Positions 5,173 through 23,648 of a stretch of DNA of 64,000 nt are shown piece by piece. Source of the stretch: Phycicoccus flavus (GTDB lineage Bacteria > Actinomycetota > Actinomycetes > Actinomycetales > Dermatophilaceae). The notes under the pieces were generated by a model that was not told the DNA's origin, did not search any database, and saw only the letters and a list, made by a program, of their open reading frames with translations. Where the stretch lies: positions 30,757 to 94,756 of the forward strand of contig NZ_SAYU02000005.1 of the NCBI RefSeq assembly GCF_004025965.2, read 5' to 3'. Numbering within the stretch: position 1 is the stretch's first letter; each line of letters opens with the position of its first letter. The translations under genes and the position numbers were made by a program.

Positions 5173-6414
5173 TCACGCTCCGCGACGCCGGGTCCCGACC
5201 CCCACGGTCGCCGTCAGGGCCACCGCGACGGCCGCGAAAGCCACGAGCACACGGTGGTCGAGCGCCGTCACCACCGCGGCGGTCAGGGCGACCATGACCG
5301 TCTGCGGCACGTTGACGACGAGCATCGTGGCGGCGGCGACCCGGCCCTGGAGATGACCGGGGGTCAGCCGCTGCCGCAGCGTGACGAACGCGACCATCAT
5401 CCAGGTCACCGCCCAGCCGGCGAGGGCGAGCCCCACCAGGCCGGTCACGAGGTGCTCGACGAGCAGCAGGGCGATCCCCGTCGCCATGACCACCAGCCCG
5501 AGACGGCACACCCGCGCCTCGCCGAGGCGGGAGGTGACCCGGCCGGCGGTGAGGGCCCCGCACGCCGCGCCGACGCCGTTCGCGGCGACGAGCACGCCGA
5601 GCGTCCCCGGCGGGCTGTCGAGGCCCTGCTCCACGAACGGGAAGATCGCGACCTGGACGGTGCCGGTGGCACCGAGCCCGACCGCGAGGGTCAGGGTGAG
5701 GGTGCGCAGGGCGGGCACCGAGCGCAGGTGCCGGAAGCCGGCCACGGCCTGGACGAGCCACCGCTCGCCGGACACCGGGCGCACGCCGCTCGTCGGGGGC
5801 CGCCCGCGCAGGAGCAGCGCCCCCGCCAGGACGAAGCCGGCCGCGGCCACCACCGCGACCACGTGGGGCCCGAGGACGACGTAGGCCCCCGTCGCGACGA
5901 GGGGGACCACCAGGCGTGCCCCCTGGTCGATCCCGGCCAGCAGCCCGTTGCCCCGCGCCAGGAGGGCGTCGGGGAGGAGGTCACGGACGAGCCCGGACTG
6001 GGCCGCCGCCCCGAGCTGGGCGGCCCCGGCGTAGACGACGGTGACGACGTAGATCCACCCCACCCATCCGGGCCCGTCGACGAGCAGGAGCGTGGCGACG
6101 ACGACGCCGGCGACGAGGTTGGACCAGCCGAGGACCGATCGCCGGGGCCACCGGTCGGCGAGGCCCGCGAGCAGCGGCGAGAAGAGCGTCGCGGCGCCGA
6201 GCAGGGCGAAGGTGAGGGCGGCGGCGCCGTCGTTCCCGGTGAGCTCCTTGACCCAGATGGCGAGGACGAGCAGCAGGGCGCTGTCGGCCAGGTTGGCGAG
6301 GACCCACGAGACCGTGAGGCGCCCGAAACCCGGCGTGCGCCACCAACGGCGGCCCTCCACCGGCCGGTGACGGTCCTCGACGTCGCTCCCCTCCCGGGGG
6401 TGCGCCGTGCTCAC
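5173..6414 (-). CDS. MFS transporter, last gene of the lipolanthine-like operon
   Basis: A 413-residue, 12-helix MFS permease with a hydrophilic N-terminus of about 25 residues, then FGRLTVSWVLANLADSALLL. The loop motif LAGLADRWPRRSVLG marks helices 2-3. Its GTG start at 6414 overlaps the TGA of the LanD-like gene (GTGA), so translation is probably coupled. Position and family suggest export of, or self-protection against, the cluster product, in parallel with the ABC system encoded just upstream. The substrate is inferred from context only. Confidence 0.85.
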   Translation of the reverse strand: MSTAHPREGSDVEDRHRPVEGRRWWRTPGFGRLTVSWVLANLADSALLLVLAIWVKELTGNDGAAALTFALLGAATLFSPLLAGLADRWPRRSVLGWSNLVAGVVVATLLLVDGPGWVGWIYVVTVVYAGAAQLGAAAQSGLVRDLLPDALLARGNGLLAGIDQGARLVVPLVATGAYVVLGPHVVAVVAAAGFVLAGALLLRGRPPTSGVRPVSGERWLVQAVAGFRHLRSVPALRTLTLTLAVGLGATGTVQVAIFPFVEQGLDSPPGTLGVLVAANGVGAACGALTAGRVTSRLGEARVCRLGLVVMATGIALLLVEHLVTGLVGLALAGWAVTWMMVAFVTLRQRLTPGHLQGRVAAATMLVVNVPQTVMVALTAAVVTALDHRVLVAFAAVAVALTATVGVGTRRRGA

Positions 6415-7046
6415 CCCGGCGCCGCACCCGCGGCGAGGGCGTCGCCGGACGCCACCGACCGGGCGCGCACGCTGCGGGCCAGCGCCAGGAGCACGGTGTG
6501 GATCGGGGCGGGGGACCCCGGCTCGACGGTGCGCGAGCTCGCCGACCGGCCCTCGACGGAGTCCAGGACGACTCTCCCGCCGTCACGGAGCCGCTCGACG
6601 TTCGCGAGGTGGATCGGTGAGGTGGCCACCACCGGCGAGACCGCGGGGACGACGACCACGGGGCAGCGGGCGTTCTGGACGACGGTGAGGGCGAAGGTGT
6701 CCGCCAGACCCATGGCCAGCTTGGCGACGGTGTTCCCGCTGGCGGGGAGGACGAGCAGCCCGTCGGCCCAGTCGGCGAGGTCGCGGTGCGGGACCGGCAG
6801 GGCGTCGTCGGCGGGCCAGTCCGGACCGAGCAGGCGACCGCCCGTGGCCGCTCGCAGCGTCGTCGGGGTGACGAAGCGCAGCGCGTTCGGCGTGACGACG
6901 ACCCTGACCTCGACGCCCGGGTACCAGGCCCGCACCGTCTCGACCCAGCCCGGCAGCAGGGACACCGACAGCGCCCCGGTGCCGACGACGAGCAGGTGGC
7001 CCCGCGGCAGGTGCAGGTCGGCCGGCCGGAGCCCGACGGAGCTCAT
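6411..7046 (-). CDS. LanD/EpiD-like flavoprotein Cys decarboxylase
   Basis: A 211-residue member of the homo-oligomeric flavin-containing Cys decarboxylase (HFCD) family. Residues 18-24 (LLVVGTG) begin the Rossmann-like FMN fold. H87 in VPHRDLADWADG fits the active-site histidine of EpiD/MrsD, and 101-106 (PASGNT) is the family PASANT motif with A to G. Known relatives oxidatively decarboxylate a C-terminal peptide Cys to an aminoenethiol. Both precursor peptides in this operon end in Cys, so that role is expected here. CoaB-type synthetase sequence is absent, so it is not the CoA enzyme. ATGA and GTGA overlaps join it to the permease and MFS genes. Confidence 0.85.
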   Translation of the reverse strand: MSSVGLRPADLHLPRGHLLVVGTGALSVSLLPGWVETVRAWYPGVEVRVVVTPNALRFVTPTTLRAATGGRLLGPDWPADDALPVPHRDLADWADGLLVLPASGNTVAKLAMGLADTFALTVVQNARCPVVVVPAVSPVVATSPIHLANVERLRDGGRVVLDSVEGRSASSRTVEPGSPAPIHTVLLALARSVRARSVASGDALAAGAAPG

Positions 7047-8314
7047 CGGTTCTCCCGCAGGGCGTCCATGGGATCCATCCGCGCCGCGCGGAGAGCCGGC
7101 GGCAGGGCGGCGACGAGCGCGGCGACCGTGACGCCGAGCACGATGGCCACGAGGCTCGTGGCGTCGAAGGCGAAGAGCTCCAGACCCGGCAGGTCGAGCC
7201 CGGCGAGGTCGAGGGCCATCGGACCGAGCAGTCGCCCGGCCAGCACCCCGAGCGCCACGGCGACGACGCTGCCGATGACGCCCAGCAGCGCGGCCTCCAG
7301 GGCCACCGAGGAGAAGACGCGACGACGCCCCATCCCGAGGGCGCGGAACATCCCGATCTGCCGCGTGCGCTCCTGGATCGACATCATCAGCGTGTTGACG
7401 ATCCCGAACATGGCCGCGACGATCGCGACCCCCGCGAGCAGGTTGAGCAGCAGCAGGATGCCGTTCACGATGGACTTGTAGTCCCCGACCGTCTGCTCGG
7501 CGGTGGCGGTGGCGTAGCCCTGCGCGGCGACGTCCCGGCTGATCCGGTCCGGGTCCTCGCCGGTCACCAGGACGCTGGAGTACCACTGCGCGTCGTCCTC
7601 GGCCGAGCCCGCCCACGAGGCGTCCTGCAGCGCGTCGTCGAGGACCTGGTTGCCGAAGGGCAGGTTCCCGCCGATGAGCGACTTCTCCTGCACCCCGACC
7701 ACCGTCCCGGGCACGGTGCGCACCTCGCCGTCCTGCCCGAGCACACCGATCTCGACCGTCCGGCCGACGGCGTCCTGCGCGCTCGCGAAGCCGAGGGGCC
7801 GGGTGGCGTACGACGGGACGATCAGCTGGGCCTGGTCGGTGTCGTCGCGCAGCTGGTCGCCGGCGACGAGGTTGGCCGTCTTGCCCGGCCAGTAGCCGTT
7901 GTAGACGAACCGGTAGCGCTGGCCGCCGTCGTGGGAGTAGTAGAGGGCGCTCACCTGGCGGTTCGCCGAGTACTCGTCGTCCGGTCCGAGGGCCGAGGTG
8001 ATCCGCTGCAGGTCCTCCTCGCCGAGGATGCCGGAGCCGACGTCCATGCCGCGCGCGGTGTCCATGTCGTCGCGGTAGACCTCCATCCGCTCGTTGAGGA
8101 AGGACATGACGCTCGTCCCGGTGACCTGGACGGTCCGGCTCGCCCCGACCGCGCGGGTCTGGGAGTCGATGTAGGTGTTGATGCCCGTGCCGAGGCCGCT
8201 CGTGACGGTGAAGGTGAAGGCGCCGATGGCGATGGCGACGATGGTGAGGAAGGCCCGCAGCGGACGGCGGAAGGTGTTCCGGCCCGCCGACCTGAGCAGG
8301 TCGCGGGGGGTCAT
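7043..8314 (-). CDS. ABC transporter permease, MacB/FtsX type
   Basis: A 423-residue permease with one N-terminal helix (FLTIVAIAIGAFTFTVTSGL). A roughly 220-residue extracytoplasmic MacB-PCD-like domain follows, then the FtsX domain with three helices, including GIVNTLMMSIQERTRQIGMFRALG, the hallmark coupling segment. The start ATGA overlaps the ATPase stop. Unlike drug-type ABC exporters, MacB-type systems move peptides or lipopeptides by mechanotransmission, which suits a lipidated RiPP. Export of the cluster product or self-immunity is inferred from the operon. Confidence 0.9.
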   Translation of the reverse strand: MTPRDLLRSAGRNTFRRPLRAFLTIVAIAIGAFTFTVTSGLGTGINTYIDSQTRAVGASRTVQVTGTSVMSFLNERMEVYRDDMDTARGMDVGSGILGEEDLQRITSALGPDDEYSANRQVSALYYSHDGGQRYRFVYNGYWPGKTANLVAGDQLRDDTDQAQLIVPSYATRPLGFASAQDAVGRTVEIGVLGQDGEVRTVPGTVVGVQEKSLIGGNLPFGNQVLDDALQDASWAGSAEDDAQWYSSVLVTGEDPDRISRDVAAQGYATATAEQTVGDYKSIVNGILLLLNLLAGVAIVAAMFGIVNTLMMSIQERTRQIGMFRALGMGRRRVFSSVALEAALLGVIGSVVAVALGVLAGRLLGPMALDLAGLDLPGLELFAFDATSLVAIVLGVTVAALVAALPPALRAARMDPMDALRENR

Positions 8315-9018
8315 CGGACCGGCTCCGTCGCCGCCGGGTCGTCCGGGGCGAGCTCGCCGTCGACGATGGTCACCCGTCGCCCACAGCGCCGCGCCAGGTC
8401 GGTGCTGTGCGTGATGAGCACGAGGGTGATGCCGTCGTCCCGGTTGAGCTCGAAGAGCAGGTCGGCGACGGTGGCACCGTTCTCGACGTCGAGGGCGCCG
8501 GTCGGTTCGTCGGCGAAGATCACCCGCGGCCGGTTCGCGAGGGCCCGTGCCATGGCCACCCGCTGCCGCTGCCCGCCGGAGAGGTTCGCCGCGTTCTCGT
8601 CGGCCCGGTCGGCCAGGCCGAGCCGGTCGAGGACCTCCAGGGCACGCTCGCGCCGCTCCTTGGCCGGGACCTTGGCGATCATCATCGGCAGCGCCACGTT
8701 CTCCAGGACGCTGGCCCGCTCCTCCAGGTGGAACTGCTGGAAGACGAAGCCGAACTCCCGGTTGCGCATCCGGTCCTGGTCCCGGGTGCTCATGGTGTCG
8801 ACGGGTTCGCCCTCGTAGCGGACCCGGCCGCCGTCGGGACGGTCCAGCGCACCGAGCAGGTGCAGGAGCGTCGACTTGCCGGACCCGCTCCGGCCCACGA
8901 TCGCGAGGGAGTCCCCCGTGCGGGCCGAGAGCGAGACCCCCTTCAGGGCGCGGAACCGGTTCTCACCCGATCCGTAGACCTTCTCGAGGTCCTCGGCCTC
9001 CAGCTGTGGCGCGTTCAT
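8311..9018 (-). CDS. ABC transporter ATP-binding protein, MacB/LolD type
   Basis: A 235-residue ATPase with Walker A GRSGSGKST (42-50), a Q-loop in FVFQQFHL, signature LSGGQRQRV and Walker B VIFADEPTGALD followed by the H-loop LVITHSTDLA. It pairs with the FtsX-type permease (four-base overlap). GGAGG lies seven bases before the ATG at 9018. That start falls inside the 3' end of the S41 peptidase gene (56-nt overlap), a tight coupling that argues for stoichiometric expression. It energises export or removal of the peptide product. Confidence 0.93.
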   Translation of the reverse strand: MNAPQLEAEDLEKVYGSGENRFRALKGVSLSARTGDSLAIVGRSGSGKSTLLHLLGALDRPDGGRVRYEGEPVDTMSTRDQDRMRNREFGFVFQQFHLEERASVLENVALPMMIAKVPAKERRERALEVLDRLGLADRADENAANLSGGQRQRVAMARALANRPRVIFADEPTGALDVENGATVADLLFELNRDDGITLVLITHSTDLARRCGRRVTIVDGELAPDDPAATEPVR

Positions 9019-11632
9019 GGGTGCCTCCTTCGTCGGGTGCTGACGCAGCGGGTTCGGGGTGTCGGTGGGCGCCGTCGGGGGTGGCGGGCGGCGGCAGGGG
9101 CAGCAGGTCGAGCAGGGCGTCGTCGTGGGCGGGTCCCGCCGCGAGGTCCTGCTCGCTCCGGCGGTCGGGGTCGAGCCCGCGGTTCTCCAGACCGAGCGAT
9201 CGGCTGGTGCCCAGGCGGTACTGCGGCAGGACCAGCGACCGGCCGTCGCCGAGCGACCATCGCCGATGGAAGCCGGTGCCCGCCCCGGCGGTCCGTCGGC
9301 CGAGGACGAGGACGCGGGGGTGGCCGGCCAGGGCCGCCGCGAGGTGCTCGCCGCCGGACCCGGTGTGCTGGTCGACGAGGACGTCGACGTAGCGCGGGCC
9401 GCGCAGCAGGGCGTGCTCGCCGGTCCCCGGGGGGCGGGCCACGGCGTCGCGGGTCAGGAGGTGCAGCAGGAGGGCCGCCAGGTGGTCCGCGAACGGCCCT
9501 CCGCGGTTGTACCTGAGGTCGAGCACGAGCGGCTCGTCCCCGCGCCAGGACCGGCACAGGGCCTCGACGGCACGCAGGCCGGCGGCGGCCACGTCGGGGA
9601 CGGCGAGGTAGCGCGCCCGCCCGTGGAGCCGGCCCGCGGCTCGGGCGCGCGCCTCGTCCACTCTCGAGGGGCACGGCGACGGTCCGGCGACGGAGCCGGG
9701 GGCGGACGCGGCAGTCGACGTGAGGAGGGCTGCGTGCGAGGACCCGAGGTCGCGCAGCGCGCTGCGCAGGGCGGTGTCGAGCTCGTCGTCGCCGACGCAG
9801 CGGGCGGCCCAGCGCAGGAGGTCGAGCGAGCGGTCCAGGAACGCCGCGCCCTCGGCCCTGGGGAGCGACCGGCCGGCGAGCAGGTCCAGGCAGCGGCGCA
9901 TCGTCCGCTCGGCCCGGTCCGGCGGAGCGGGCACGTCGGTCGCGGCGGGCAGGTCCGGCGACGCTCGGTGCCGGGCCCGGGCCTCCCTCGGCCTGGGAGA
10001 GCCGGCCGCCCCGACGCCCGGCACCGGGACGAGGCCTGAGCGCTCGCGCACCCAGCACCCGGAGTCGTCCGTGACGACCTCGCGCACGTCGTGGAGCCCG
10101 CGGGCCAGCACCTGCACCGGAGGCGCCCCGGTCCTGCCGGCCTGCGCGCGCAGGACCGCGTGGGGGTCGACCGCGCACAGCACGCTGGGCTCGCGGACGG
10201 GCGCCGCGCTGCCGGTGAGCGGGCTCACCGGGGTGGAGACGAAGAGCAGCCGGTCGTCGGCCGCGAACACCGGCAGCCGGACGCCGGCCCCCGGCACGGT
10301 CACCGTCGCGCCCTCTCCCGAGGACGTCCGGGCGACCCGCAGGACGGCGCCGGCCAGCTCGGTCTCCTCCGTCCACGCGACGACGGAGCCGTCGGCCCTC
10401 ACCACGGGCGCTCCCCGCCGGTGGGCCGGGCGCGCCTCGAGGCCCCGGACCGGGCCGGTCCGCGGAACCCACACGACCCCGTCCGCGGCGCTCGCCAGCA
10501 CGACGCCGGTGGCGGCCACGGCCGCGTCGTCGGCCTGGAAGACGACGGCTGCGTCGGGCAGGGCGCGGGGACGGACGGTGGCGGTGGCCGGCTCGACCTC
10601 GAGGACGGCGGTGGCACCGCCGACCCGGACCACGGCCGTGAGCGCGCCGTCGCCGGTCCAGTCGGCGTGGGTCACCCACCCGTGCTCGGCGGGCAGTGCC
10701 CACACGTCGTCGTCAGTGGTCACGACGAGCCGTCCTGCGCCCACGCGGGCCACGGCCGGCGCCCACGGGCTGCGCGTCGTGGCCTCCGCCGTCCAGGGGC
10801 GCGGGCCACCGGCCGGTGCGGTCGCGGCGGCCCCACCGGGGCCGCGGACCTCCAGGACCGCGTCGTCGGCCGGCCGCAGGGTGAGGACGTCGCCGGACAC
10901 GCCGACGACGAGCCGGTCGCGGCCGCGGCGCAGCGAGGTGACGCGGCCGCGCCGCGCAAGGTGGTGACGGCGGACGGGACCGCCCCCGACCGGGACCGAG
11001 TACAGGTCCAGGGGGCCGTCGGGGTCGTCGAGCACGAAGACCCGGCCCCCGAGGAGGCAGGCGTCGGCGGGGTTGCCCCAGGGGTGGGGGTCCGGGGTCC
11101 ATCGGCCGCCGTCGTCGCGGAGCAGCCGGCGGCGGCTGCCGCCGCGCCACCCGCGCACGTGGGCCGGGTGGACCCCTGCCGTGACCGCGACCCGGTGGCC
11201 TGCGGAGTCCTCGTCGAGGGCGCTGAGATGGGAGAGGGCGGAGGGGTGCAGGTCGTGCGGGCCGTGGACGTCGAGCTCGACGAGGGTGACGGGCGCATCG
11301 TCACCGTCCTCCTCGGGGACGCCCAGGACGACGGTGCCGCGGCCGCGCCAGGTCAGTGGCACGGGACGGAGCGACCCGGACCAGGCCACGACGGGCTCGG
11401 CGTCGGGCCCGGCGAGGACGCGGATCTCCGTCGTGCCGTCGACCTCGACGACGGCGACGCAGCCGTCGCCGTCGGGGTCGCCCAGCAGGTGCCGGACCCG
11501 GCCGCCGCCGACGTCGAGGCGGGCCGGGTCGCCGGTGCCGAAGGGCACGCACCACGCCTCGCCGGCGCAGAGGTACAGCACGTGCTCGCCGGCCATCGAC
11601 GGGCTGCTCACGGCGGCGGTGGGTGTGGACAC
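8963..11632 (-). CDS. Tricorn-like S41 family peptidase, candidate leader protease
   Basis: An 889-residue protein. Its N-terminal 550 or so residues look like a repeated beta-propeller (short repeating strands, many VVxVDG/LDVHGP-type turns). The C-terminus is a C-terminal-processing (S41) domain with LVLDLRYNRGG, the nucleophile serine in HTGSGGEHLAAAL, and LGRRTAGAGTGF in the tricorn core position. No signal peptide is present, so it should be cytoplasmic. GTG at 11632 has AAAGGAGG just upstream. It is the first gene after the precursors, so it may remove the leader or degrade unmodified peptide. No S41 enzyme is an established class III leader protease to my knowledge, so this is inference. 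Confidence 0.8.
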   Translation of the reverse strand: MSTPTAAVSSPSMAGEHVLYLCAGEAWCVPFGTGDPARLDVGGGRVRHLLGDPDGDGCVAVVEVDGTTEIRVLAGPDAEPVVAWSGSLRPVPLTWRGRGTVVLGVPEEDGDDAPVTLVELDVHGPHDLHPSALSHLSALDEDSAGHRVAVTAGVHPAHVRGWRGGSRRRLLRDDGGRWTPDPHPWGNPADACLLGGRVFVLDDPDGPLDLYSVPVGGGPVRRHHLARRGRVTSLRRGRDRLVVGVSGDVLTLRPADDAVLEVRGPGGAAATAPAGGPRPWTAEATTRSPWAPAVARVGAGRLVVTTDDDVWALPAEHGWVTHADWTGDGALTAVVRVGGATAVLEVEPATATVRPRALPDAAVVFQADDAAVAATGVVLASAADGVVWVPRTGPVRGLEARPAHRRGAPVVRADGSVVAWTEETELAGAVLRVARTSSGEGATVTVPGAGVRLPVFAADDRLLFVSTPVSPLTGSAAPVREPSVLCAVDPHAVLRAQAGRTGAPPVQVLARGLHDVREVVTDDSGCWVRERSGLVPVPGVGAAGSPRPREARARHRASPDLPAATDVPAPPDRAERTMRRCLDLLAGRSLPRAEGAAFLDRSLDLLRWAARCVGDDELDTALRSALRDLGSSHAALLTSTAASAPGSVAGPSPCPSRVDEARARAAGRLHGRARYLAVPDVAAAGLRAVEALCRSWRGDEPLVLDLRYNRGGPFADHLAALLLHLLTRDAVARPPGTGEHALLRGPRYVDVLVDQHTGSGGEHLAAALAGHPRVLVLGRRTAGAGTGFHRRWSLGDGRSLVLPQYRLGTSRSLGLENRGLDPDRRSEQDLAAGPAHDDALLDLLPLPPPATPDGAHRHPEPAASAPDEGGTHERATAGGRGPREGLRIG

Positions 11633-11735: not shown

Positions 11736-11822
11736 TCAGCAGGACGTGCTCTGGAAGCTGGCGACGGTGACGTCGGCGGCCACCTCGACGACGTCGAGGT
11801 CGTGGATCTCGTCGATGGTCAT
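11736..11822 (-). CDS. Lipolanthine-like precursor peptide, copy 2
   Basis: A 28-codon gene with AAAGGAGGGG seven bases before its ATG at 11822. The peptide begins MTIDEIHDLD, continues with an acidic, hydrophobic leader (VVEVAADVTV) and ends ASFQSTSC. The last seven residues are S-x2-S-x2-C, the labionin/avionin motif of class III lanthipeptides, with the Cys at the very C-terminus. It differs from copy 1 only at residues 2, 9 and 10, and the last 18 residues are identical. It is too short for automatic gene callers. The substrate role (LanKC, then LanD) is inferred from motif and neighbourhood; the cleavage site is unknown. Confidence 0.88.
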   Translation of the reverse strand: MTIDEIHDLDVVEVAADVTVASFQSTSC

Positions 11823-11868: not shown

Positions 11869-11955
11869 TCAGCAGGACGTGCTCTGGAAGCTGGCGACGG
11901 TGACGTCAGCGGCCACCTCGACGACCTCGACGTCGTGGATCTCGTCGATGGACAT
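11869..11955 (-). CDS. Lipolanthine-like precursor peptide, copy 1
   Basis: A 28-codon gene with GAGGAGGA before the ATG at 11955. The peptide starts MSIDEIHDVE and ends with the same ASFQSTSC as copy 2. The DNA of the two copies is near identical over the whole coding region but not between genes, indicating tandem duplication under selection on the peptide. Only one Cys is present, so a single ring joining S22, S25 and C28 is the maximum. LanD action on the terminal Cys would give avionin rather than labionin. The leader is acidic, with an IDEIHDxxVVEV stretch likely to form the amphipathic helix that class III synthetases bind. Confidence 0.88.
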   Translation of the reverse strand: MSIDEIHDVEVVEVAADVTVASFQSTSC

Positions 11956-15189: not shown

Positions 15190-16816
15190 GATCGCCCACC
15201 CCCTCCCGCAGCATCGGGGCGACGTCGTCCCGGGCGACCACCACCCGGACCACCGTCGGCACGCCCGCCTGCGCGGCCGCGACCGCCTGCGCGAGCCGCG
15301 GACGGACCTGGGCGGGGCGCTCGACGACGAGGACGTCCCCGCGGTCGGCCGGGCCGAGGAGCCCGCCGGCGCGCTCGAAGCGCTGCGGGGACCCGGCGCC
15401 CTCGGCCTGCCGGGCGAGCCACCCCATCGCCCCGTCGTCGAGGACGACGTAGAGCAGCCGGCGACGCGACGCGAGGATCTCGTCGGCGTCGGGACGCAGG
15501 GTCGCGAGGGCCGCGTCCCCGGTGACGCACACGACGAGCGGCTGCTCGGTCACCGCCGCCCCGGCGGCCGCGGCGACCCCGAAGCCGAGCGTCGTCTGCT
15601 CCGACGGGGCGATCGAGCGGGCCCGGTCCGGCAGCGTGAGGTGCGGGAACGCGTAGCTCCACATGTCGTGCAGCCCGTTCTCGTGGACCACCACCGCGTC
15701 CTCGGGCAGCAGGTCCGAGAGGGCGTGCACGACGAGGGCGCCGAGCGTGCCCTCGTCGCCCCGCGACTCCAGGAGGCGCGCCCGGACCCCGGCGACCCGT
15801 GCGGCCCACGCCGTCCGCTCGAGGACCGGGCCCCGTGCGACGAGCGCGTCCGCCCAGTCGGCGGCGTCGCGCACCAGGTGCGCCCCGGGCAACCGGTGGT
15901 GCACGCCGGCGGGGGTGGCGGTGACCTGCAGCCACGCGGACTCCGTCGGCATGCCCGTCAGCGCGGTCTCCTCGAGCTGGCTGCCGACGGCCACGACGAG
16001 GTCGCTGGACGCGACGAGGTCCCGTACGGGACCGGCCATGTACAGGCCGGCGACGCCGAGGAAGCGCGGGTGGGACTCGGGGACGCAGCCCCGGCCGGAC
16101 GCGGTGACGAGGACGGCGGCGTCGGTCCGCGCGGCGAGGTCGAGGACCTGGGGCCGGGAGAGCGAGCGCGCACCGCTGCCGAGCAGCAGGCACGGCCGGC
16201 GCGCGGCGGTCAGGAGGTCGAGCGCCCCGTCGAGGCCCACCGGCACGCTCCGGCCGTCGGGACCGGCGTCGACGGGGGACGGAGCGGCGTCGGGCACCTC
16301 GAGGTAGACGGGTCCCGCGGGTGCCGCGACCGCACGGGCCAAGGCCTCGCGGAGCATCGACGCCGCGTGTCGCGGGGTCGGCACCCGTGCCGCCCAGCGC
16401 GTGACGGGGGCGACGAGCGCGAGCGTCGGGGCGTCCTGGAAGGCCCGGTCCTGTAGGCGCTCGGTGGCGGTCCCGGCGGCGAGGACGACGACGGGCGCGT
16501 GCCCGTGGTCGGCCTCGAGCAGGCCGGGGACGGCGGCGGCGACGGCCGGTCCTCGTCCGACGAGGACCACCGCCGGGCGCCCGGTGGCGAGGGCGGACCC
16601 GGCCGCCATGTGGACCGCCGTCCGCTGGGACCGGCACCACTCGACGGTCACGCCGTGGTCCTCCAGGGCCCGTAGCGCCCGCATGTCGTCGTCCGGCAGG
16701 CCGAACACGACCCGCACGCCCTGCTCCACGAGGGTGCTCGCCACCTGCGTCCACGGGTCATCGGGGGCGGGGGCCGGGAGGACCGGGGGCGCCGCCACCG
16801 CGGTCACGGCGCTCAC
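15182..16816 (-). CDS. ThDP-dependent enzyme with atypical active site
   Basis: A 544-residue acetolactate synthase/2-oxoacid decarboxylase-fold protein with PYR domain (about 20-190), central domain (LLLGSGARSLS onward) and PP domain. The PYR motif usually read as RHExxAxxMAxG is RSQRTAVHMAAG here, so the ThDP-activating Glu is Gln. The cofactor motif GDG-x24-NN is GDA-x24-DD. Either it uses ThDP unusually or it has lost decarboxylase chemistry. GTG at 16816 overlaps the ketosynthase stop (GTGA). In context it could decarboxylate a 2-oxo acid to an aldehyde used by the fused aldehyde dehydrogenase downstream of it in the pathway; that link is inference. Confidence 0.85.
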   Translation of the reverse strand: MSAVTAVAAPPVLPAPAPDDPWTQVASTLVEQGVRVVFGLPDDDMRALRALEDHGVTVEWCRSQRTAVHMAAGSALATGRPAVVLVGRGPAVAAAVPGLLEADHGHAPVVVLAAGTATERLQDRAFQDAPTLALVAPVTRWAARVPTPRHAASMLREALARAVAAPAGPVYLEVPDAAPSPVDAGPDGRSVPVGLDGALDLLTAARRPCLLLGSGARSLSRPQVLDLAARTDAAVLVTASGRGCVPESHPRFLGVAGLYMAGPVRDLVASSDLVVAVGSQLEETALTGMPTESAWLQVTATPAGVHHRLPGAHLVRDAADWADALVARGPVLERTAWAARVAGVRARLLESRGDEGTLGALVVHALSDLLPEDAVVVHENGLHDMWSYAFPHLTLPDRARSIAPSEQTTLGFGVAAAAGAAVTEQPLVVCVTGDAALATLRPDADEILASRRRLLYVVLDDGAMGWLARQAEGAGSPQRFERAGGLLGPADRGDVLVVERPAQVRPRLAQAVAAAQAGVPTVVRVVVARDDVAPMLREGVGDRA

Positions 16817-18075
16817 GACGCCACCCCTGCGAGGACGACCGTCGCGTTGTGGCCGCCGAACCCGAAGGAGTTCGACATGCACAGCTCCGGCGCCGCGGTC
16901 CGGGCCACGTGGGGGACCAGGTCGAACTCGGGGAACTCCGGGTCGTCCAGGTTGATCGTCGGCGGCAGCATCCGGTCCCGCATGGCCTGGATGCAGAAGA
17001 TCGCCTCCAGGGCGCCGGCGGCACCGATGAGGTGGCCGGTCGTCGACTTCGTCGAGCTGATCGGCACCCGGTGCGCGTGCTCCCCGAACACGGCGGCGAT
17101 GGCGGCCAGCTCGGTCGCGTCGTTGTACGGGGTGCTCGTTCCGTGGGCGTTGACGTACCCGACGTCCGCGGGCGTGCAGCCGGCGTCGGCGAGCGCCTGC
17201 CGCATCGCGAGCTGTGCCCCGACGCCCTCCGGGTGGGGGGCGGTCGCGTGGTGGGCGTCCGAGGAGCAGCCGTAGCCCCGGACCTCGGCCAGCACCCGGG
17301 CGCCGCGGTCGCGGGCGGATGCCTCGGACTCCAGGAGCAGGGCCGCCGCCCCGGCGGACATGACGAACCCGCTGCGGGACCGGTCGAACGGACGCGAGCC
17401 GCGCTCGGGGGCGTCGTTGGAGTCGGTCGCGAGGGCCCGGATGTTGGCCGTCGCGGCGATGTCCTGGACGTTGAGGGAGTGCTCGGCGGTGACGACGAGG
17501 ACGGCGTCGGCGTAGCCGTGGCGCACCATCCGCATGCCCTCGCCGACGCCGACCGTGCCGCTGGCGCAGGCCGCCGCGACGGCGTGGCTCGGGCCCTGGG
17601 CGTGCCACTCGACGCTGAGGTAGGAGCTGAGGCTGTCGTGCGCGCCGTAGACGGCACCGTTCGCCGACACGCCCCGCGGCCCCTTCGCCCCGAGCGACCG
17701 GGTGCCGAGATGGGTGACCTCGGTGGGCCCGTAGCCGCTGGCGGCCAGGACGGAGAACCGGTCGGACCGGAAGGGCGGCGCGCCCTCGTCGGTGACGTGG
17801 GCGGACATGGCCTCGCGGGCCGCGGCGACGCCGAGCTGCGCGTAGCGGCTCAACCGGCGCTGGTCGGGCCGGGACAGGTGCGCGGAGGGGTCGAACCCCG
17901 TCACCTCGCCGCCGATCGTCACCGTCAGCCCGTCCAGCTCGACGTCGGTGAGGGTCGCGATGCCGCTGCGCCCGGACGACGTGGCCGCCCACGCGCTCTC
18001 GGCGTCGAGGCCGTTGGGGGCGACCGCCCCGATGCCGGTGACGACGACCCGCGCCGGCTCGTGGTGTGTCCTCAT
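16813..18075 (-). CDS. Beta-ketoacyl-ACP synthase II (FabF-like) of the cluster
   Basis: A 420-residue thiolase-fold condensing enzyme. The Cys-His-His triad is complete: C170 in AAACASG, H311 in NAHGTSTPYND and H348 in STTGHLIGAAG; SNSFGFGGHN near the end is the second Gly loop. It should extend an acyl chain by decarboxylative condensation with malonyl-ACP. Being embedded in the lanthipeptide operon it is not the housekeeping FabF. Its likely task is building the lipid part, borrowing ACP, KR, DH and ER from primary fatty acid synthesis, since none is encoded here. One base separates it from the upstream ligase stop. Confidence 0.93.
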   Translation of the reverse strand: MRTHHEPARVVVTGIGAVAPNGLDAESAWAATSSGRSGIATLTDVELDGLTVTIGGEVTGFDPSAHLSRPDQRRLSRYAQLGVAAAREAMSAHVTDEGAPPFRSDRFSVLAASGYGPTEVTHLGTRSLGAKGPRGVSANGAVYGAHDSLSSYLSVEWHAQGPSHAVAAACASGTVGVGEGMRMVRHGYADAVLVVTAEHSLNVQDIAATANIRALATDSNDAPERGSRPFDRSRSGFVMSAGAAALLLESEASARDRGARVLAEVRGYGCSSDAHHATAPHPEGVGAQLAMRQALADAGCTPADVGYVNAHGTSTPYNDATELAAIAAVFGEHAHRVPISSTKSTTGHLIGAAGALEAIFCIQAMRDRMLPPTINLDDPEFPEFDLVPHVARTAAPELCMSNSFGFGGHNATVVLAGVAS

Positions 18076-18076: not shown

Positions 18077-20749
18077 TCAGGCGTCCCCGATCGTCGAGCC
18101 GAACCGCACGGCGGTCTGCGTGATGTTGACGGGCCCGAGCACCCGTCCGCCCCGGTGGGCGACGAACCCGGACTCCACCCCGTGTCCGCCGAAGGGCTCG
18201 TACGGCGTCGCCGCGTCGGCGAGGCTCTGGTCCATGGCGACCATGTAGTGGTCGCAGAGGGTGCGGGCGGCGGTCTCCTCGACGGCGTACAGGGAGACCC
18301 CGAACCCGTTCTCCAGGTAGTACCGCGTGCGGAGCAGGTCGAGGACCTCGCCGACCGAGCCGAAGCCGGCCATCGTGACGATCGGGGCGAAGTGCTCCAC
18401 CGGCGCCGCCCGGCCCACGTCGTCCGTGCGCAGGACCGCGGGCGAGAAGGTCCGGCCGCGGTAGTCGACCTCGCCGCCGCTGACGATCGCCTCGGCGTGG
18501 GTGGTCAGGTGGCCCAGGGCGTGCAGCAGCGTCTCGTCCTTGAGCAGCGGGGCGAGGGCGCCGTCGTTCGCCCGGACGTACTCCGCGGCGGCCTCGACGA
18601 CGAGGGGCACGAGCGTGTCGACCACGTCGTCGTGGGCGAGCACCAGGTCGGGGGCGAGGCAGTCCTGCCCGCCGTTGAACAGCCGCGAGATGACGATGTC
18701 CTTGGCCGCGGCCCGCAGGTCGGCCCCGCGGTTCACGACGATGGGGTTGACGCCCCGCCCGAAGAACAGCAGGACGTGCCGCTCGCCGAGCGCCTGCAGG
18801 ATCTCCTCGGCGTTGGAGCGGCGACCCGTGAACAGCACGAGCGACGGCCGGCTCGCCACGGTCTCGACGAAGGCCGCCTGGGTCGAGGTGTCGAGGGCGA
18901 CGGGGCAGGGTGCCGCAGCGCCGAGCAGCTCGACGACCCGGGCCATGACCGTCTCCGTGCCGCGGGCGGGACGCAGGCGTACCTCGCTCGCCCACAGGGA
19001 CGGCACCAGGCAGTAGATGGCGAACGACTCCAACAGGGCGTTGCGCGGGAAGAACACGTCGACCGGCACGCGGGGCGGTCGGGTGTAGAGCCCGAGCTCC
19101 CCGTCGGCGTGGTTGAGCACGTTGACCAGGGACCAGTAGTCGCGGTGCGCCGTGGCCCGGTCGCTCGTCTCCTCGATCAGGGCGATGAGCTCCTGGCGGT
19201 TCTCGCGGACCGTGGCCCGCAGGCGGCCGGCGGGGGAGTCCGCGCGGCACTGGAGCGGGCCCTGGGCCTCGCCGAGTCCCTCGGCCAGGGCCCGCAGGCG
19301 GGCCCGGCTCACCTTGCCGCTGGAGTCCACCGGCAGGGTCCCGAGGACGCGGAGGTGGTCCGGCCGCTGGTCCTCGGCCAGCAGCCCGGCGACCCGGCGT
19401 CGCCAGACCTCGCGGGGCCGGTGGAGCGGGTCCTGGACGAACAGCCAGTAGCGGGCGGTCTCGCCGCTCTCGTCGGGCACGGCCACGGCCTCGACACCCT
19501 CGGCCGTCAGGGCCGCCTCGACCCAGGCGAGGGAGACGAGGCTGCCGCCCCGGCTGATCATCCCGCGGCGCCCGAGCACGACGAGCCCGTCGGCGGTCAG
19601 GCGGCCGACGTCCCCGGTGTCGAACCACGCCTGCGGGTCCGCCTCGACCGGGGGCCGCCCGTCGGTCCGTCCGACGAGCACGCGACCCAGCCGGCCGTCG
19701 GCGCAGGGCACCCCCGCGTCGTCGAGGACGGCGAGCCGGTAGGGCTCGACCGGGGTGAGCGCCCCGCGCCCCGGCGTCGACGCGAACGCCACGTTGCCCA
19801 GCTGGGTCAGACCGTAGCCGTCGGTCAGCGGCCGGTGGAGCCGCGCACGGGCGTCGTCCTGGAGGCGCGGTGACAGACCCTCGCCGCCGACCCCGAACAG
19901 GCGCACGGCGTCCAGCCGGGCGGTGCCCGCCGGCCGTTTGTCGAGCTCGTCGAGCAGGGCCCGGTACAGGACGGGCGTCGCGTCCAGGCAGGTGACCCCG
20001 TGCCGCTCGACGGTCCGCAGGACCTCGCCCAGCCGGGTGCGGGAGCAGGTGACGAGCCCGGCCCCGACGACGGCGGCGACGAGCACCGCGGAGGAGCCGT
20101 ACTGCCCGGCGAGGGGGAGCAGCGGGAGCAGGGTGTCGTCGTCGTGGTAGCCCAGCGCCGCCGCGGTGGCCCGGGCGTTCTCGAGGAGGCTCGTCCCCGA
20201 CTTCCACACCAGGGTGGGCTCGCCGGTCGTCGTGCCGGAGCTGAAGATCCCGAGGGCCCGGGACCGGGCGAACCACGCGCCGAGGTCGACGTCGGCGTCC
20301 GTCCGCTCCGTCCGGGCCGCCCACTGTGCCGGGTGCGGCCCCGATCCCTCCAGCGGCCCGAAGACCGCCCGCAGGTCGTGTGCGGTGCCGCCGGGGGCCG
20401 CCCGCAGCGTGACCCGGACCGCGTCCTGGGGGACCGTGCCCGGGTGGGCCAGGCGCAGGCGGGCCAGGTCGTCGACGAGGACGACGCCGGCGCCGACGGA
20501 GGCCGCGGCCAGCAGGGTCACGATGCCGCGGCCGGTGTCGTCGACCTCCAGGACGACCGTGCCGGAGGCGTCGACGCCGAGCTCCGCGAGGGCCGCGGCG
20601 GTGATCGCCACGGCATGCCGCAGCGCGTCGCCCTCGAGCGTCGTGCCGTGCCACGCGACCGAGCGGGGCAGGTGCCGCTTGTTCGGTCCGTCGCCGCGCG
20701 CCGGCCCCTCGACCGGCAGCCGCACCGGCCTCGTGGTGGTCGTCGTCAT
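18077..20749 (-). CDS. Acyl-AMP ligase/aldehyde dehydrogenase fusion
   Basis: An 890-residue two-domain protein. Residues 1-500 are an ANL adenylating enzyme: P-loop SSGTTTGEP (170-178), DGYGLTQ (310-316), FDTGD (376-380) and the C-terminal lysine K489 in SSGKVSR. Residues 520-890 are an aldehyde dehydrogenase fold with the catalytic C697 in FNGGQDCLA. The general-base ELGG block reads FFGRG, so the usual Glu is absent, as in CoA-acylating enzymes. It may make an acyl thioester from an aldehyde and/or activate a free acid for the ketosynthase. It is the first gene of the operon; AGGGGGA precedes the ATG. No carrier-protein domain is visible. Confidence 0.88.
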   Translation of the reverse strand: MTTTTTRPVRLPVEGPARGDGPNKRHLPRSVAWHGTTLEGDALRHAVAITAAALAELGVDASGTVVLEVDDTGRGIVTLLAAASVGAGVVLVDDLARLRLAHPGTVPQDAVRVTLRAAPGGTAHDLRAVFGPLEGSGPHPAQWAARTERTDADVDLGAWFARSRALGIFSSGTTTGEPTLVWKSGTSLLENARATAAALGYHDDDTLLPLLPLAGQYGSSAVLVAAVVGAGLVTCSRTRLGEVLRTVERHGVTCLDATPVLYRALLDELDKRPAGTARLDAVRLFGVGGEGLSPRLQDDARARLHRPLTDGYGLTQLGNVAFASTPGRGALTPVEPYRLAVLDDAGVPCADGRLGRVLVGRTDGRPPVEADPQAWFDTGDVGRLTADGLVVLGRRGMISRGGSLVSLAWVEAALTAEGVEAVAVPDESGETARYWLFVQDPLHRPREVWRRRVAGLLAEDQRPDHLRVLGTLPVDSSGKVSRARLRALAEGLGEAQGPLQCRADSPAGRLRATVRENRQELIALIEETSDRATAHRDYWSLVNVLNHADGELGLYTRPPRVPVDVFFPRNALLESFAIYCLVPSLWASEVRLRPARGTETVMARVVELLGAAAPCPVALDTSTQAAFVETVASRPSLVLFTGRRSNAEEILQALGERHVLLFFGRGVNPIVVNRGADLRAAAKDIVISRLFNGGQDCLAPDLVLAHDDVVDTLVPLVVEAAAEYVRANDGALAPLLKDETLLHALGHLTTHAEAIVSGGEVDYRGRTFSPAVLRTDDVGRAAPVEHFAPIVTMAGFGSVGEVLDLLRTRYYLENGFGVSLYAVEETAARTLCDHYMVAMDQSLADAATPYEPFGGHGVESGFVAHRGGRVLGPVNITQTAVRFGSTIGDA

Positions 20750-20847: not shown

Positions 20848-20867
20848 TCCGTCCTTGGTCGCAGCCC

Positions 20868-21698: not shown

Positions 21699-21725
21699 GT
21701 GATGGCCCGCACGCACCGGGGCACC

Positions 21726-21731
21726 TACGGT
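21726..21731 (+). promoter_or_regulatory. -10 box, leaderless kinase start
   Basis: TACGGT, seven bases before the ATG at 21739; no Shine-Dalgarno is present. Confidence 0.5.
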
Positions 21732-21738
21732 GGACACC

Positions 21739-22980
21739 ATGCCGTCCCTGCGCGACCTCGTGAGCGGACCCCGTCCGCCCCGCCGCGCCCCGACCCGTCG
21801 GTCCGACGCCGTCATCGCGCTGTCGCTCTTCGCCGTCGGGCTGACGATCCTCTCCTCGGGCATCGGCCCGTTCGCGGAGATCCCGGCGCTGGTCCCGGCG
21901 ACCACCCCGATGTGGCATCTCGTGCCGCTGGCCGTGGGCTGCGCCGGCGTCACGGTGCAGTCGCGCACGCCGGTGGTCGCGTTCGTCCTCGCGACCGTCG
22001 CGCTGGTCGCGGACGTCGTCATCGGCCTGCACATGGCCGTGCTCGGCGTGTGGGTGAACGCGGTGTACGCCGCGGGACGGCACCTGTCCCTGAGCGCCCG
22101 GGGTGCGGTGCGGTGGGTCGTCGGCCTGGTCTGCGCCGCGGTGGCGGCCTGGGTCCTGGCCTCCGGGCGCGGCGCCGGGGACGCCGTCCTCGGGACCCTC
22201 CAGGTGGGGGTCTTCGCGGCCCTGGCGCTGTGGCTGAGCGGGGACGCCCGCAGCGGCGACGACCGCGCCGAGCGGGAGCGTCGCCGGTCCGCGGACGAGC
22301 GGCGGCGTGCCGTCGCGGAGCAGGCCGAGGTGCTGCAGCACGAACGGGCGCGCCTGGCGGCCCAGTTCCACGACACCATCTCCTCGAACCTGTCCTCGAT
22401 CGCCCTCTTCACGACGGCCGCCCTCGACCGCGACCCCGACACCGACCGCGACCGGTCCGTGCTGCACGAGGCCCGGCGGGCGGCCCTGGACGGCCTCACC
22501 GACATGCGCGCTCTCATCGACGTGCTCCGCAGCTACGACGTCGACGTCGACGACGCCCGCGACGTCGAGCAGCCCAGCCTCGAGGAGATCGTCGCCGGGC
22601 TCGAGCCGGCCGGGCTCGAGGTCGACGCCGACCTGGCCACGGTCGAGCTCGGGCCCGCGCAGGAGCAGGCCCTGGCCCAGGTCGTCAAGGAGTCACTGAC
22701 CAACGCCCTCAAGCACGGTGACGGCCGCGCGACGGTGCGGCTCGTGTCCACCGGGACGGGGGTCCGGCTCACCGTGAGCAACGGCCTCGCGGCCTGCGCG
22801 GACGGTGACCGCCGGCCGCCGGTCATCGCCGGCGGCATCGGCCTGGGGTCGATGGCGGCGCGGGTGTCGGCGGTCGGTGGCCGGTTCCGGTCGGGAGAGA
22901 CCGAGACCGGGCAGGAGCGCCGCTGGAGCGTCGACGCCGAGATCCCGCGGGTGCCCTCCCGCGACGGGGGACCGAGGTGA
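21739..22980 (+). CDS. Sensor histidine kinase, NarL/DesK type
   Basis: A 413-residue kinase. Residues 20-180 hold about five or six membrane helices with almost no extracellular domain, typical of sensors of membrane or cell-envelope state. After an Arg/Glu-rich coil comes HisKA_3 with the phospho-acceptor in LAAQFHDTISSNLSSIA. The HATPase N-box is VVKESLTNALKHG and the G-box GGIGLGSMAARV. ATG 21739 is favoured over GTG 21730 by the TACGGT box. It overlaps the regulator by GTGA. Its place beside the lanthipeptide operon suggests it senses the product or envelope stress and controls the cluster. Confidence 0.92.
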   Translation: MPSLRDLVSGPRPPRRAPTRRSDAVIALSLFAVGLTILSSGIGPFAEIPALVPATTPMWHLVPLAVGCAGVTVQSRTPVVAFVLATVALVADVVIGLHMAVLGVWVNAVYAAGRHLSLSARGAVRWVVGLVCAAVAAWVLASGRGAGDAVLGTLQVGVFAALALWLSGDARSGDDRAERERRRSADERRRAVAEQAEVLQHERARLAAQFHDTISSNLSSIALFTTAALDRDPDTDRDRSVLHEARRAALDGLTDMRALIDVLRSYDVDVDDARDVEQPSLEEIVAGLEPAGLEVDADLATVELGPAQEQALAQVVKESLTNALKHGDGRATVRLVSTGTGVRLTVSNGLAACADGDRRPPVIAGGIGLGSMAARVSAVGGRFRSGETETGQERRWSVDAEIPRVPSRDGGPR

Positions 22981-23648
22981 TCCGGGTCCTCATCGTCGAC
23001 GACCACTCGACGATCCGCGCCGGCCTGCGGCTCATCCTCAGCGACGCCCAGGACGTCGTGGTCGTGGGCGAGGCCGCGGACGGTGACGCCGCAGTGCACA
23101 ACGCCCGGGCCCTGTCGCCGGACGTCGTCCTCATGGACGTCCGGATGCCGCGGACGGACGGGGTCGAGGCGACCCGGCGGCTGCGTGCCGAGGGGTACCG
23201 CGTGCTCGTGCTCACCACCTACGACCACGACGAGGTCGTCTACGGCGCCATCCGCGCCGGAGCGGCCGGGTTCCTCCTCAAGACCGCGGAGTCCTCCGAG
23301 CTCGTCGCGGCCGTGCGACGGGTGGCGGCCGGCGACGGCGCCCTCGCGCCCGAGGTGACGGGGCGGGTGCTCGCCCGGCTCACCGAGACCGCCGACGCCG
23401 CGGCGCAGGGCCGGGCGGACCGCAGCGGGCTCGAGCGCCTCGAGCAGGCGGGCCTCACCAGCCGCGAGGTCGAGGTGCTCGCCCACATCGGCCACGGCCG
23501 CTCGAACATCGCGATCTCGCGGCGGCTCGACATCAGCCTGGGGACGACCAAGACGCACGTCTCGCGCATCCTCATGAAGCTGGGACTGGAGTCGCGGACC
23601 CAGGCCGCCCTCATCGCCCGGGACAGCGGCCTGGGCGCGGACGGGTAG
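22977..23648 (+). CDS. Response regulator, NarL/FixJ (LuxR-HTH) family
   Basis: A 223-residue regulator. The receiver has acidic pair DD near residues 8-9, the phospho-Asp in VVLMDVRMP, T/S switch LTTYDHDEVV and the conserved Lys in FLLKTAE. The C-terminal LuxR-type HTH reads LTSREVEVLAHIGHGRSNIAIS followed by the recognition helix SLGTTKTHVSRIL. The GTG start lies in the kinase stop (GTGA). Partner of the adjacent kinase; likely binds the TACSACTTTGGT motif found before the GAP gene, the kinase and the biosynthetic operon (inference). Confidence 0.95.
   Translation: MIRVLIVDDHSTIRAGLRLILSDAQDVVVVGEAADGDAAVHNARALSPDVVLMDVRMPRTDGVEATRRLRAEGYRVLVLTTYDHDEVVYGAIRAGAAGFLLKTAESSELVAAVRRVAAGDGALAPEVTGRVLARLTETADAAAQGRADRSGLERLEQAGLTSREVEVLAHIGHGRSNIAISRRLDISLGTTKTHVSRILMKLGLESRTQAALIARDSGLGADG

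What the first reader, a model, noticed from the sequence alone, without database searches (positions are those of the whole stretch)
5173..23648. A complete lipolanthine-like (class III lanthipeptide plus fatty-acyl) cluster
Seen: LanKC, a LanD-like decarboxylase, two precursors ending in S-x2-S-x2-C, a GNAT, a ketosynthase, a ligase-ALDH fusion, a ThDP enzyme, an S41 peptidase, an ABC and an MFS exporter, almost all with overlapping start/stop codons on one strand. Known: class III LanKC plus LanD on such a C-terminus makes avionin, and a GNAT joins acyl chain and peptide in goadvionin; microvionin is the lipolanthine archetype. Inferred: this operon makes an acylated avionin peptide. The gene set (tricorn-like peptidase, ligase-ALDH fusion, altered ThDP enzyme) is not one I can match to a described cluster.
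Basis: partly seen in the sequence, partly recalled or inferred. Interest (0 to 1): 0.95.

Follow-up and report, generated by a model that had tools for sequence, protein, structure and literature searches.

The report
Gene island for lipid-capped ring peptide
An 18.5-kb gene island in a likely actinobacterium, absent from the same spot in the relatives compared, is predicted to make a small ring-shaped peptide with a fatty tail, and its likely tail-making enzymes belong to a set that recurs in other bacteria and for which our paper searches found no description.

Summary
A 12-gene minus-strand operon (5173-20749) encodes a ligase-ALDH fusion, ketosynthase (KS), ThDP enzyme, LanKC, GNAT, two 28-residue precursors ending SFQSTSC (S-x2-S-x2-C), an S41 peptidase, an ABC pair, a LanD-type flavoprotein and an MFS exporter. 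With a lipid-transporter-like gene and a two-component pair it forms an island absent beside pyrH in 9 of 9 informative congeners. Lipolanthine-type architecture is supported: of 47 LanKC loci scanned, 7 have a GNAT beside LanKC, all with S-x2-S-x2-C precursors. In every relative aligned, the ThDP enzyme has Gln for the catalytic Glu and the ALDH lacks its hydrolytic Glu but keeps Cys and Asn. I infer an aldehyde relay making an unusual acyl tail that GNAT puts on the avionin peptide. The direction of that chemistry, the tail and the product are not shown. LanKC phylogeny neither confirms nor rejects a lipolanthine clade. New variant of a known kind.

The parts
18077..20749 (-). ligase-ALDH fusion (890 aa): adenylate-forming domain about 1-490, ALDH domain about 505-890, no carrier domain found between
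   Evidence: PF00501 and PF00171; 10 relatives at 49-73% identity; motifs SSGTT, TGD, GK kept
16813..18075 (-). FabF-like ketosynthase (420 aa)
   Evidence: PRK07314 subfamily model 429 bits over cut-off 387; fabF equivalog 441 bits, under its cut-off 494; PF00109/PF02801
15182..16816 (-). ThDP-dependent enzyme of the acetolactate-synthase superfamily (544 aa), Gln in place of the catalytic Glu
   Evidence: TPP_enzyme N, M, C; alignments
12658..15189 (-). LanKC class III lanthipeptide synthetase (843 aa)
   Evidence: NF038151 611.4 bits, cut-off 575; solved LanKC chains
12018..12665 (-). GNAT acyltransferase (215 aa), predicted to acylate the peptide N-terminus
   Evidence: PF13302/PF00583; 31-36% identical to GNATs beside LanKC in three other genomes
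11869..11955 (-). precursor peptide 1, 28 aa, ends SFQSTSC
11736..11822 (-). precursor peptide 2, 28 aa, ends SFQSTSC
8963..11632 (-). S41 peptidase (889 aa), predicted leader peptidase
   Evidence: PF03572; 5 relatives, invariant TGSGGEH
8311..9018 (-). ABC exporter ATPase
   Evidence: LolD/MacB-type models, below their cut-offs
7043..8314 (-). ABC exporter permease (FtsX/MacB type)
   Evidence: PF02687, PF12704
6411..7046 (-). LanD-type flavin cysteine decarboxylase (211 aa), motif PASGNT
   Evidence: PF02441 78 bits; CoaBC model 85 and CypD model 63 bits, both far below cut-off; PDB 6jls, 7cfu, 6jdd; 34% to the LanD of G1126
5173..6414 (-). MFS transporter
   Evidence: PF07690
20879..21724 (-). 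SfLAP (Sap, sulfolipid-1-addressing) membrane protein; island member, role in lipopeptide transport is a guess
   Evidence: PF11139 93.5 bits; not found at this site in congeners
21730..22980 (+). sensor histidine kinase, island member
   Evidence: own reading of the sequence; no close relative in 11 congeners, best 56 bits
22977..23648 (+). NarL-type response regulator, island member
   Evidence: own reading of the sequence; not found at this site in congeners

Best explanation
The island encodes a class III lanthipeptide synthetase, a LanD-type flavoprotein, two 28-residue precursors ending in S-x2-S-x2-C, a GNAT, and a ligase-ALDH / ThDP / ketosynthase set, and is predicted to make an N-acylated avionin peptide whose acyl tail is likely built through an aldehyde intermediate. 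Inferred steps: LanKC dehydrates Ser22 and Ser25 and closes the ring; LanD oxidatively decarboxylates Cys28, giving avionin; the S41 peptidase removes the leader, perhaps near Asp17, leaving a peptide such as VTVASFQSTSC; GNAT transfers an acyl thioester to the new N-terminus; ABC and MFS proteins export it; the two-component pair regulates. For the tail: the ligase domain adenylates a carboxylic acid, the fused ALDH takes the acyl group on Cys697 and, lacking the hydrolytic base, reduces it to an aldehyde; the Gln-type ThDP enzyme joins this aldehyde to the acyl anion from a 2-oxo acid; the product is re-activated and the KS, with ACP and reducing enzymes of primary metabolism, elongates or couples it before GNAT uses it. 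Shown: gene content, order, motifs, recurrence and insertion site. Not shown: every reaction, the substrates and the product.
For: Gene content and overlaps. LanKC over its equivalog cut-off; the LanD-type protein's best solved matches are flavin decarboxylases incl. cypemycin's, and it is 34% identical to the LanD-type protein of G1126, another LanKC+GNAT locus. All 7 LanKC+GNAT loci carry S-x2-S-x2-C precursors. The two loci with a clear adjacent LanD (window, G1126) have Cys as the last residue, while G609 and G1717, without one, have residues after it; G613, G506 and G438 also end in Cys with no LanD adjacent. ALDH+ThDP occur in 4 of 7 GNAT-linked and 0 of 40 other LanKC loci; without the window and G1126, 3 of 5 against 0 of 40, Fisher p = 7e-4. 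Longest-contig lengths 11504, 10735 and 13751 are shared by fusion relatives P0002, P0003, P0005 and LanKC relatives P0019, P0020, P0022. Gln at the catalytic Glu in 25 of 25 ThDP rows (window included) plus G1717; no Glu at the ALDH general-base site in 26 of 26 rows (window included) plus G1717, with Cys kept in all. Glu51 is present in 94% of the ThDP decarboxylase superfamily and Val in glyoxylate carboligases (PMC3534367 passages); acylating ALDHs lack the Glu base (PMC4762007 passages). Within 8 kb of ALDH, the ThDP gene lies in 23 and a ligase in 23 of 25 locus files outside the window; one ThDP miss, L047, has its ThDP gene on the adjoining file L046.
Against: The LanKC tree does not give the GNAT-linked enzymes significant unity (52/29) and scatters the others in a larger tree. 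The best NCBIfam model for the LanD-type protein is CoaBC (85 bits) ahead of CypD (63 bits), both far below cut-off. The island has one KS only: I saw no ACP, AT, KR or ER in it, so tail building needs genes elsewhere. The window's ThDP enzyme is more derived than its relatives (SQR for DQR, GDA for GDG, DD for xN) and may differ in function. ALDH loss of Glu fits an acylating (oxidative) direction as well as a reductive one. Two ALDH-ThDP loci have no ligase within 8 kb (L091, L108) and L103 has ligase and ALDH without ThDP. The leader-helix motif is met, but shuffled leaders reach it in 21-34%. No metabolite or expression data.
Confidence: 0.42

Rival explanations
1. Oxidative starter supply: the ThDP enzyme decarboxylates an amino-acid-derived 2-oxo acid to an aldehyde, the ALDH oxidises it to an acyl thioester (or the acid is then activated by the ligase), the KS elongates it with primary-metabolism enzymes, and GNAT puts the chain on the avionin peptide. 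Lipolanthine tails with a guanidino or trimethylammonium end (recalled) would be the model.
For: Ligase and KS also sit in the LanKC+GNAT locus G1126 without ALDH and ThDP, so these two may act before the ligase. An aminotransferase lies near the cassette in L092. Among models the ThDP enzyme matches is a 5-guanidino-2-oxopentanoate decarboxylase, 113 bits, below its cut-off of 500 and behind acetolactate synthases (161 bits).
Against: Both residues that plain decarboxylation and acid release rely on are replaced in all rows read; an acylating ALDH would make the fused ligase redundant; I saw no aminotransferase in the island.
Confidence: 0.3
2. Plain acylated lanthipeptide: LanKC, LanD and GNAT act as in known lipolanthines, but the ligase-ALDH, ThDP and KS genes make a separate small molecule or signal that is only co-regulated.
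For: The ALDH-ThDP-ligase set also occurs in stretches where no lanthipeptide gene was seen, e.g. beside NRPS or ATP-grasp genes.
Against: Overlapping reading frames run KS-ThDP-LanKC-GNAT, and the set is linked to GNAT among LanKC loci.
Confidence: 0.12
3. The ring is a labionin or lanthionine and the GNAT is a self-protection acetyltransferase; no lipopeptide is made.
For: S-x2-S-x2-C cores also occur without a clear adjacent LanD (G613, G506, G438, G609, G1717). GNATs can serve self-resistance (PMC13060382 passage).
Against: A LanD-type gene with a 4-nt overlap lies in the operon and Cys is the last residue; GNAT genes sit beside LanKC together with PKS-like or fatty-acid-type genes in other loci.
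Confidence: 0.1

Closest known systems
Lipolanthines (microvionin, nocavionin, goadvionin, nocaviogua)
   Same: LanKC, LanD-type decarboxylase, S-x2-S-x2-C core at the C-terminus, GNAT for N-acylation, fatty-acyl genes in the cluster (known systems partly from passages or sections of PMC10435860, PMC9415263, PMC13060382, PMC10885120, partly recalled)
   Different: Known tails are described as polyketide or fatty-acid chains; here a ligase-ALDH fusion, Gln-type ThDP enzyme and one KS, and an S41 peptidase in the operon, whereas microvionin uses M1 proteases encoded outside its cluster (PMC10885120 passage)
Lipoavitides (Ren et al. 2024, abstract recalled; paper not held)
   Same: Ribosomal peptide N-acylated by an acyltransferase with acyl groups from non-modular fatty-acid enzymes
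   Different: Their acyl group is recalled to start with a KAS III enzyme; no KAS III in this island. Locus G064 (L012/L013), with KAS III, ACP-like gene, LanD-like gene and the same ligase/ALDH/ThDP set, may be closer to them
Carbazole pathway (CqsB3/NzsH ThDP enzyme with ketosynthase-like CqsB1; PMC7466098 passages)
   Same: A ThDP enzyme ligates two 2-oxo acids and a ketosynthase-like enzyme couples the product to an acyl-ACP
   Different: Its ketosynthase-like partner is KAS III-like rather than FabF-like, and the product is an aromatic alkaloid; no ligase-ALDH in the passages seen
P5CS (kinase-ALDH fusion) and LuxE/LuxC acid reductases (recalled)
   Same: Activating domain followed by an ALDH-fold domain that reduces the activated acid
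   Different: Here activation is by an AMP-forming ligase domain; no sequence test of kinship was made

Membership tests
lipolanthine | class III synthetase LanKC | tested here: met
   NF038151 611.4 bits over cut-off 575
lipolanthine | flavin cysteine decarboxylase (LanD) in the cluster | tested here: met
   PF02441 and flavin-decarboxylase structures; 34% to the G1126 protein. Caveat: CoaBC is the best NCBIfam model, below cut-off
lipolanthine | precursor ending in S-x2-S-x2-C | tested here: met
   both precursors
lipolanthine | leader helix motif with four L/I/V/M/T at three-residue steps (PMC10885120) | tested here: met
   I3, I6, V9 or L9, V12; weak test: shuffled leaders reach it in 21% and 34%, and 8 of the 10 comparison precursors show only three steps
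lipolanthine | GNAT joining acyl chain and peptide | tested here: inconclusive
   GNAT gene present and related to others beside LanKC; activity not testable here
lipolanthine | polyketide or fatty-acid genes for a long acyl chain | tested here: inconclusive
   one KS and a ligase domain; no ACP, AT, KR, DH or ER seen among the island's genes
lipolanthine | LanKC inside a lipolanthine clade | tested here: inconclusive
   52/29 support; not one group in a wider tree; no characterised lipolanthine LanKC was in hand
lipolanthine | acylated avionin product | not testable with these tools
   needs mass spectrometry and NMR
lipoavitide | KAS III that starts the acyl group (recalled) | tested here: not met
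   the only ketosynthase in the island is FabF-like
CoA-acylating ALDH | no Glu general base (PMC4762007) | tested here: met
   Glu absent in 26 of 26 aligned rows and in G1717
CoA-acylating ALDH | conserved active-site His in place of the base (PMC4762007) | not tested
glyoxylate carboligase | Val at the catalytic Glu51 position (PMC3534367) | tested here: not met
   Gln in all 25 rows
tricorn protease | beta-propeller domains in front of an S41 domain | not testable with these tools
   S41 domain met; N-terminal fold not predicted

The most novel reading that the evidence does not exclude
The ligase-ALDH fusion is a carrier-free carboxylic acid reductase that passes its aldehyde to a Gln-type ThDP carboligase: an undescribed, widespread carbon-carbon bond-forming cassette that caps ribosomal peptides of at least two classes, and nonribosomal products, with hydroxyketone-type lipid tails.
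Probability: 0.3. Interest if true: 0.82.

Novelty: new variant of a known kind. Interest (0 to 1): 0.62.

Why it matters
Few lipolanthines are known: PMC10435860 (introduction) counts 12 in three groups and reports antibacterial activity for microvionin and goadvionins. This island points to a branch of lipo-lanthipeptide clusters with a different, cluster-encoded tail chemistry and its own peptidase. The ALDH-ThDP pair has two catalytic residues replaced in the same way in all relatives aligned, which suggests selected new chemistry rather than decay, and it is directly testable with purified enzymes.

Tried and rejected
Plasmid origin: no plasmid record holds a close LanKC (60 records, all below 60% identity), fusion (18 records, all below 60%, none over 80% coverage), GNAT (8 records, all below 60%) or the M. 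luteus S41 protein (no match). Phage and viral collections were not searched. A named-genome scan with the fusion profile found one distant ALDH locus (L008). An order-wide LanKC profile search gave no closer cluster (396 genomes; seven of the 18 genomes with matches fetched). I took locus L200 (G1717) for a possible microvionin cluster and dropped that: its precursors end in CF and CVR, and its decarboxylase hit lies 5.6 kb away past unrelated genes and looks like CoaBC (my reading). The idea that the ThDP enzymes BbmA and CsmA (PDB titles) explain the module could not be pursued (the ten papers listed do not concern them). Paper searches whose listings showed no description of the ALDH-ThDP-ligase set with lanthipeptides: (20 of 859 papers listed); lipolanthine literature: 30 of 47 listed; 36 of 37; 15 of 28. 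Note 4 says tsf and pyrH are adjacent in 9 of 10 congeners; on re-reading tsf lies within 8 kb of pyrH in 7 of 10, two more have other flanking genes 4.7-5.0 kb from pyrH, and one contig ends too early. None of the nine informative loci has cluster genes beyond 28-30% ABC-ATPase matches in two.


Full report
1. What is there. On the minus strand of 5173-20749 lie twelve reading frames in one direction: ligase-ALDH fusion (890 aa), ketosynthase (420), ThDP enzyme (544), LanKC (843), GNAT (215), two precursors (28 each), S41 peptidase (889), ABC ATPase (235), ABC permease (423), LanD-type flavoprotein (211), MFS (413). Seven of eleven junctions overlap, one is a 1-nt gap, and the three longer gaps flank the precursors. 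Families were assigned by Pfam and NCBIfam. LanKC passes its NCBIfam equivalog cut-off (611.4 over 575), though its kinase and LanC Pfam matches are below their cut-offs. The LanD-type protein passes PF02441; its NCBIfam matches, CoaBC first and CypD second, are far below cut-off. The precursors end in Ser22-Phe-Gln-Ser25-Thr-Ser-Cys28-stop.

2. Boundaries. In congeners the window's left-flank genes (one I recognise as tsf; names recalled, not from a call) lie close to pyrH (recognised likewise). I fetched regions from ten of the eleven congeners. In seven, tsf is within 8 kb of pyrH; in two, other flank genes lie 4.7-5.0 kb from it; one contig ends too early. No cluster gene, SfLAP, histidine kinase or response regulator gene was found there, apart from 28-30% matches of the ABC ATPase in two. 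In the window the tsf-pyrH distance is 19.3 kb. The histidine kinase has no close relative in the 11 congeners (best 56 bits against 879 for itself), and LanKC only 34-36% relatives in 3 of 11. So 5173-23648 is an island and the two-component pair and SfLAP gene belong to it. G+C does not mark it.

3. Relatives of the island's proteins. The fusion has ten relatives of 49-73% identity in a database of 5.8 billion proteins, all listed under the sources 'lgn' or 'ena' only. LanKC has nine relatives of 43-71%, among them a Micrococcus luteus protein at 44%. The S41 peptidase has five (35-61%), among them an M. luteus protein at 38%. In these searches only about 8,000 candidates each were scored. 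Fusion and LanKC relatives share the longest-contig lengths 11504, 10735 and 13751, which suggests that they lie on the same contigs. I could not read those contigs.

4. LanKC survey. Together with the window and L110 I scanned 47 loci with one protocol. Seven have a GNAT beside LanKC: window, G613, G506, G438 (locus L057, at a contig edge), G609, G1717, G1126. All seven have short precursors with S-x2-S-x2-C at or near the end. ALDH plus ThDP enzyme are present in four of the seven (window, G613, G506, G1717) and in none of the 40 others. The window was given and G1126 (L110) was found through its ligase, so I removed both for the test: 3 of 5 against 0 of 40, p = 7e-4. GNAT detection by phmmer may miss distant ones. 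G609 has polyketide-synthase-like genes instead; G1126 has ligase, a second AMP-binding enzyme and a desaturase and an ACP-like protein (own reading). A clear LanD lies near LanKC in the window and G1126 only. A weak match in G1717 (43 bits, 5.6 kb away) I set aside as CoaBC-like. G613, G506 and G438 have further flavoprotein genes elsewhere in their genomes (weak LanD matches on four other contig stretches of G438 and G506), so an unclustered LanD is not excluded there.

5. The cassette outside lanthipeptides. A search of 392 genomes of G613's genus with the fusion profile gave 67 genomes with a match at E <= 1e-50; in 12 (G613 included) one frame covers both parts, and in one more it is interrupted. 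An earlier search of 396 phylum genomes with a narrower profile and E <= 1e-60 found only the window's genome and G064. In the surroundings fetched (20 loci, plus earlier ones), 25 locus files other than the window hold an ALDH of this kind; 23 have the ThDP enzyme and 23 a ligase within 8 kb. The misses are L047 (its ThDP gene is on the adjoining file L046), L103 (no ThDP gene found), and L091 and L108 (no ligase near). Neighbours include condensation-domain, AurF-type N-oxygenase, MaoC-type dehydratase, desaturase and aminotransferase genes, and on named Streptomyces plasmids ATP-grasp and GNAT genes. Locus G064, of another family in the phylum, has split ligase and ALDH, ThDP enzyme, KAS III and ACP-like genes together with a LanD-like gene and a short ORF ending ACSPYVTC.

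6. Active sites. In all 25 ThDP rows aligned, the window included, the catalytic Glu position holds Gln (motif DQR, SQR in the window); G1717 has it too. A published survey gives Glu at this position in 94% of the superfamily and Val as the mark of glyoxylate carboligases (PMC3534367, passages). In 26 ALDH rows and in G1717 the general-base Glu is absent while the catalytic Cys is kept; the oxyanion Asn is kept in the 26 rows, and the NAD-site Glu in the 25 rows that reach it (residue roles recalled, except the Glu base, PMC4762007 passages). The ligase keeps its phosphate-loop and catalytic Lys motifs in the rows that reach them (roles recalled). So the ALDH can probably still do hydride transfer but not hydrolysis. 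The window's ThDP enzyme is the odd one in two further motifs (GDA, DD), so its activity may differ.

7. Mechanism. Most likely: LanKC and LanD make avionin on the C-terminal heptapeptide, the S41 peptidase frees the N-terminus, and GNAT acylates it. The domain order activating domain-ALDH, the lost hydrolytic base and the lost Glu in the ThDP enzyme favour acid to aldehyde to carboligation over plain oxidation; P5CS is the recalled analogue, and the carbazole pathway shows a ThDP enzyme working with a ketosynthase-like enzyme (PMC7466098, passages). The oxidative direction stays a strong rival. The M1 proteases of microvionin are encoded outside its cluster (PMC10885120, passage). A term search of that review for S41 gave 15 occurrences; the 12 shown are all inside reference identifiers, so an S41 leader peptidase would probably be new there; this is an inference.

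8. Phylogeny. In a 36-row LanKC tree the window met other long branches. Without those, the five GNAT-linked LanKCs then in hand fall on one side of a branch with support 52/29, which is not significant; a supported set of eight (99/96) holds all five and three without GNAT. In a 37-row tree with the window's close relatives, these ten form one group (100/100) but the other five GNAT-linked LanKCs do not form one group, and the clade test did not finish. G1717 was not in the trees, nor was any characterised lipolanthine LanKC that I know of. This neither confirms nor refutes membership.

9. Verdict. Lipolanthine-like in architecture; a new variant because of the tail-making set and the peptidase; a bold but testable reading is a new carbon-carbon bond-forming cassette. 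I did not find the cassette in print (listings), but two key lipolanthine and lipoavitide papers are not in the library, so it may be part of a cluster described there.

Noticed in passing
L012/L013 (G064:C3:1-36000): A cluster in another family of the phylum combines ligase, ALDH, Gln-type ThDP enzyme, KAS III, ACP-like protein, GNAT and FabF with a LanD-like gene and an ORF ending ACSPYVTC; possibly an aminovinyl-cysteine peptide with an acyl tail.
   Followed up: partly
L200 (G1717:C1:176800-196700): LanKC+GNAT+KS+ALDH+ThDP+AT-like+ligase with a ferritin/R2-like 340-aa protein (own reading) beside the precursors, whose cores carry residues after the Cys.
   Followed up: partly
L094, L095, L096, L100: Fused ligase-ALDH, ThDP enzyme, KS and enoyl reductase; in L094 beside an AurF N-oxygenase, a YqcI/YcgG-MaoC protein and a condensation-domain protein.
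   Followed up: partly
L088, L089, L090 (Streptomyces plasmid records): ALDH-ThDP-ligase triad next to a GNAT and ATP-grasp ligases, in L089 also KS and a HAD-IIIC (FkbH-like) protein; product unknown to me.
   Followed up: no
P0025, P0136: Records named Micrococcus luteus hold a LanKC (44%) and an S41 peptidase (38%) of this island's kind, so a related cluster may exist in that species; synteny not read.
   Followed up: no
window 4384-23718 and L125-L134: The tsf-pyrH interval varies from about 0.3 kb to several kb among congeners with different genes in it, so it may be a favoured insertion site.
   Followed up: partly
window 4415-4448: A strong hairpin-like inverted repeat (GAGAGGCCCCCACCGGATCCGGTGGGGGCCTCTC) between the SnoaL-like gene and tsf.
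   Followed up: no
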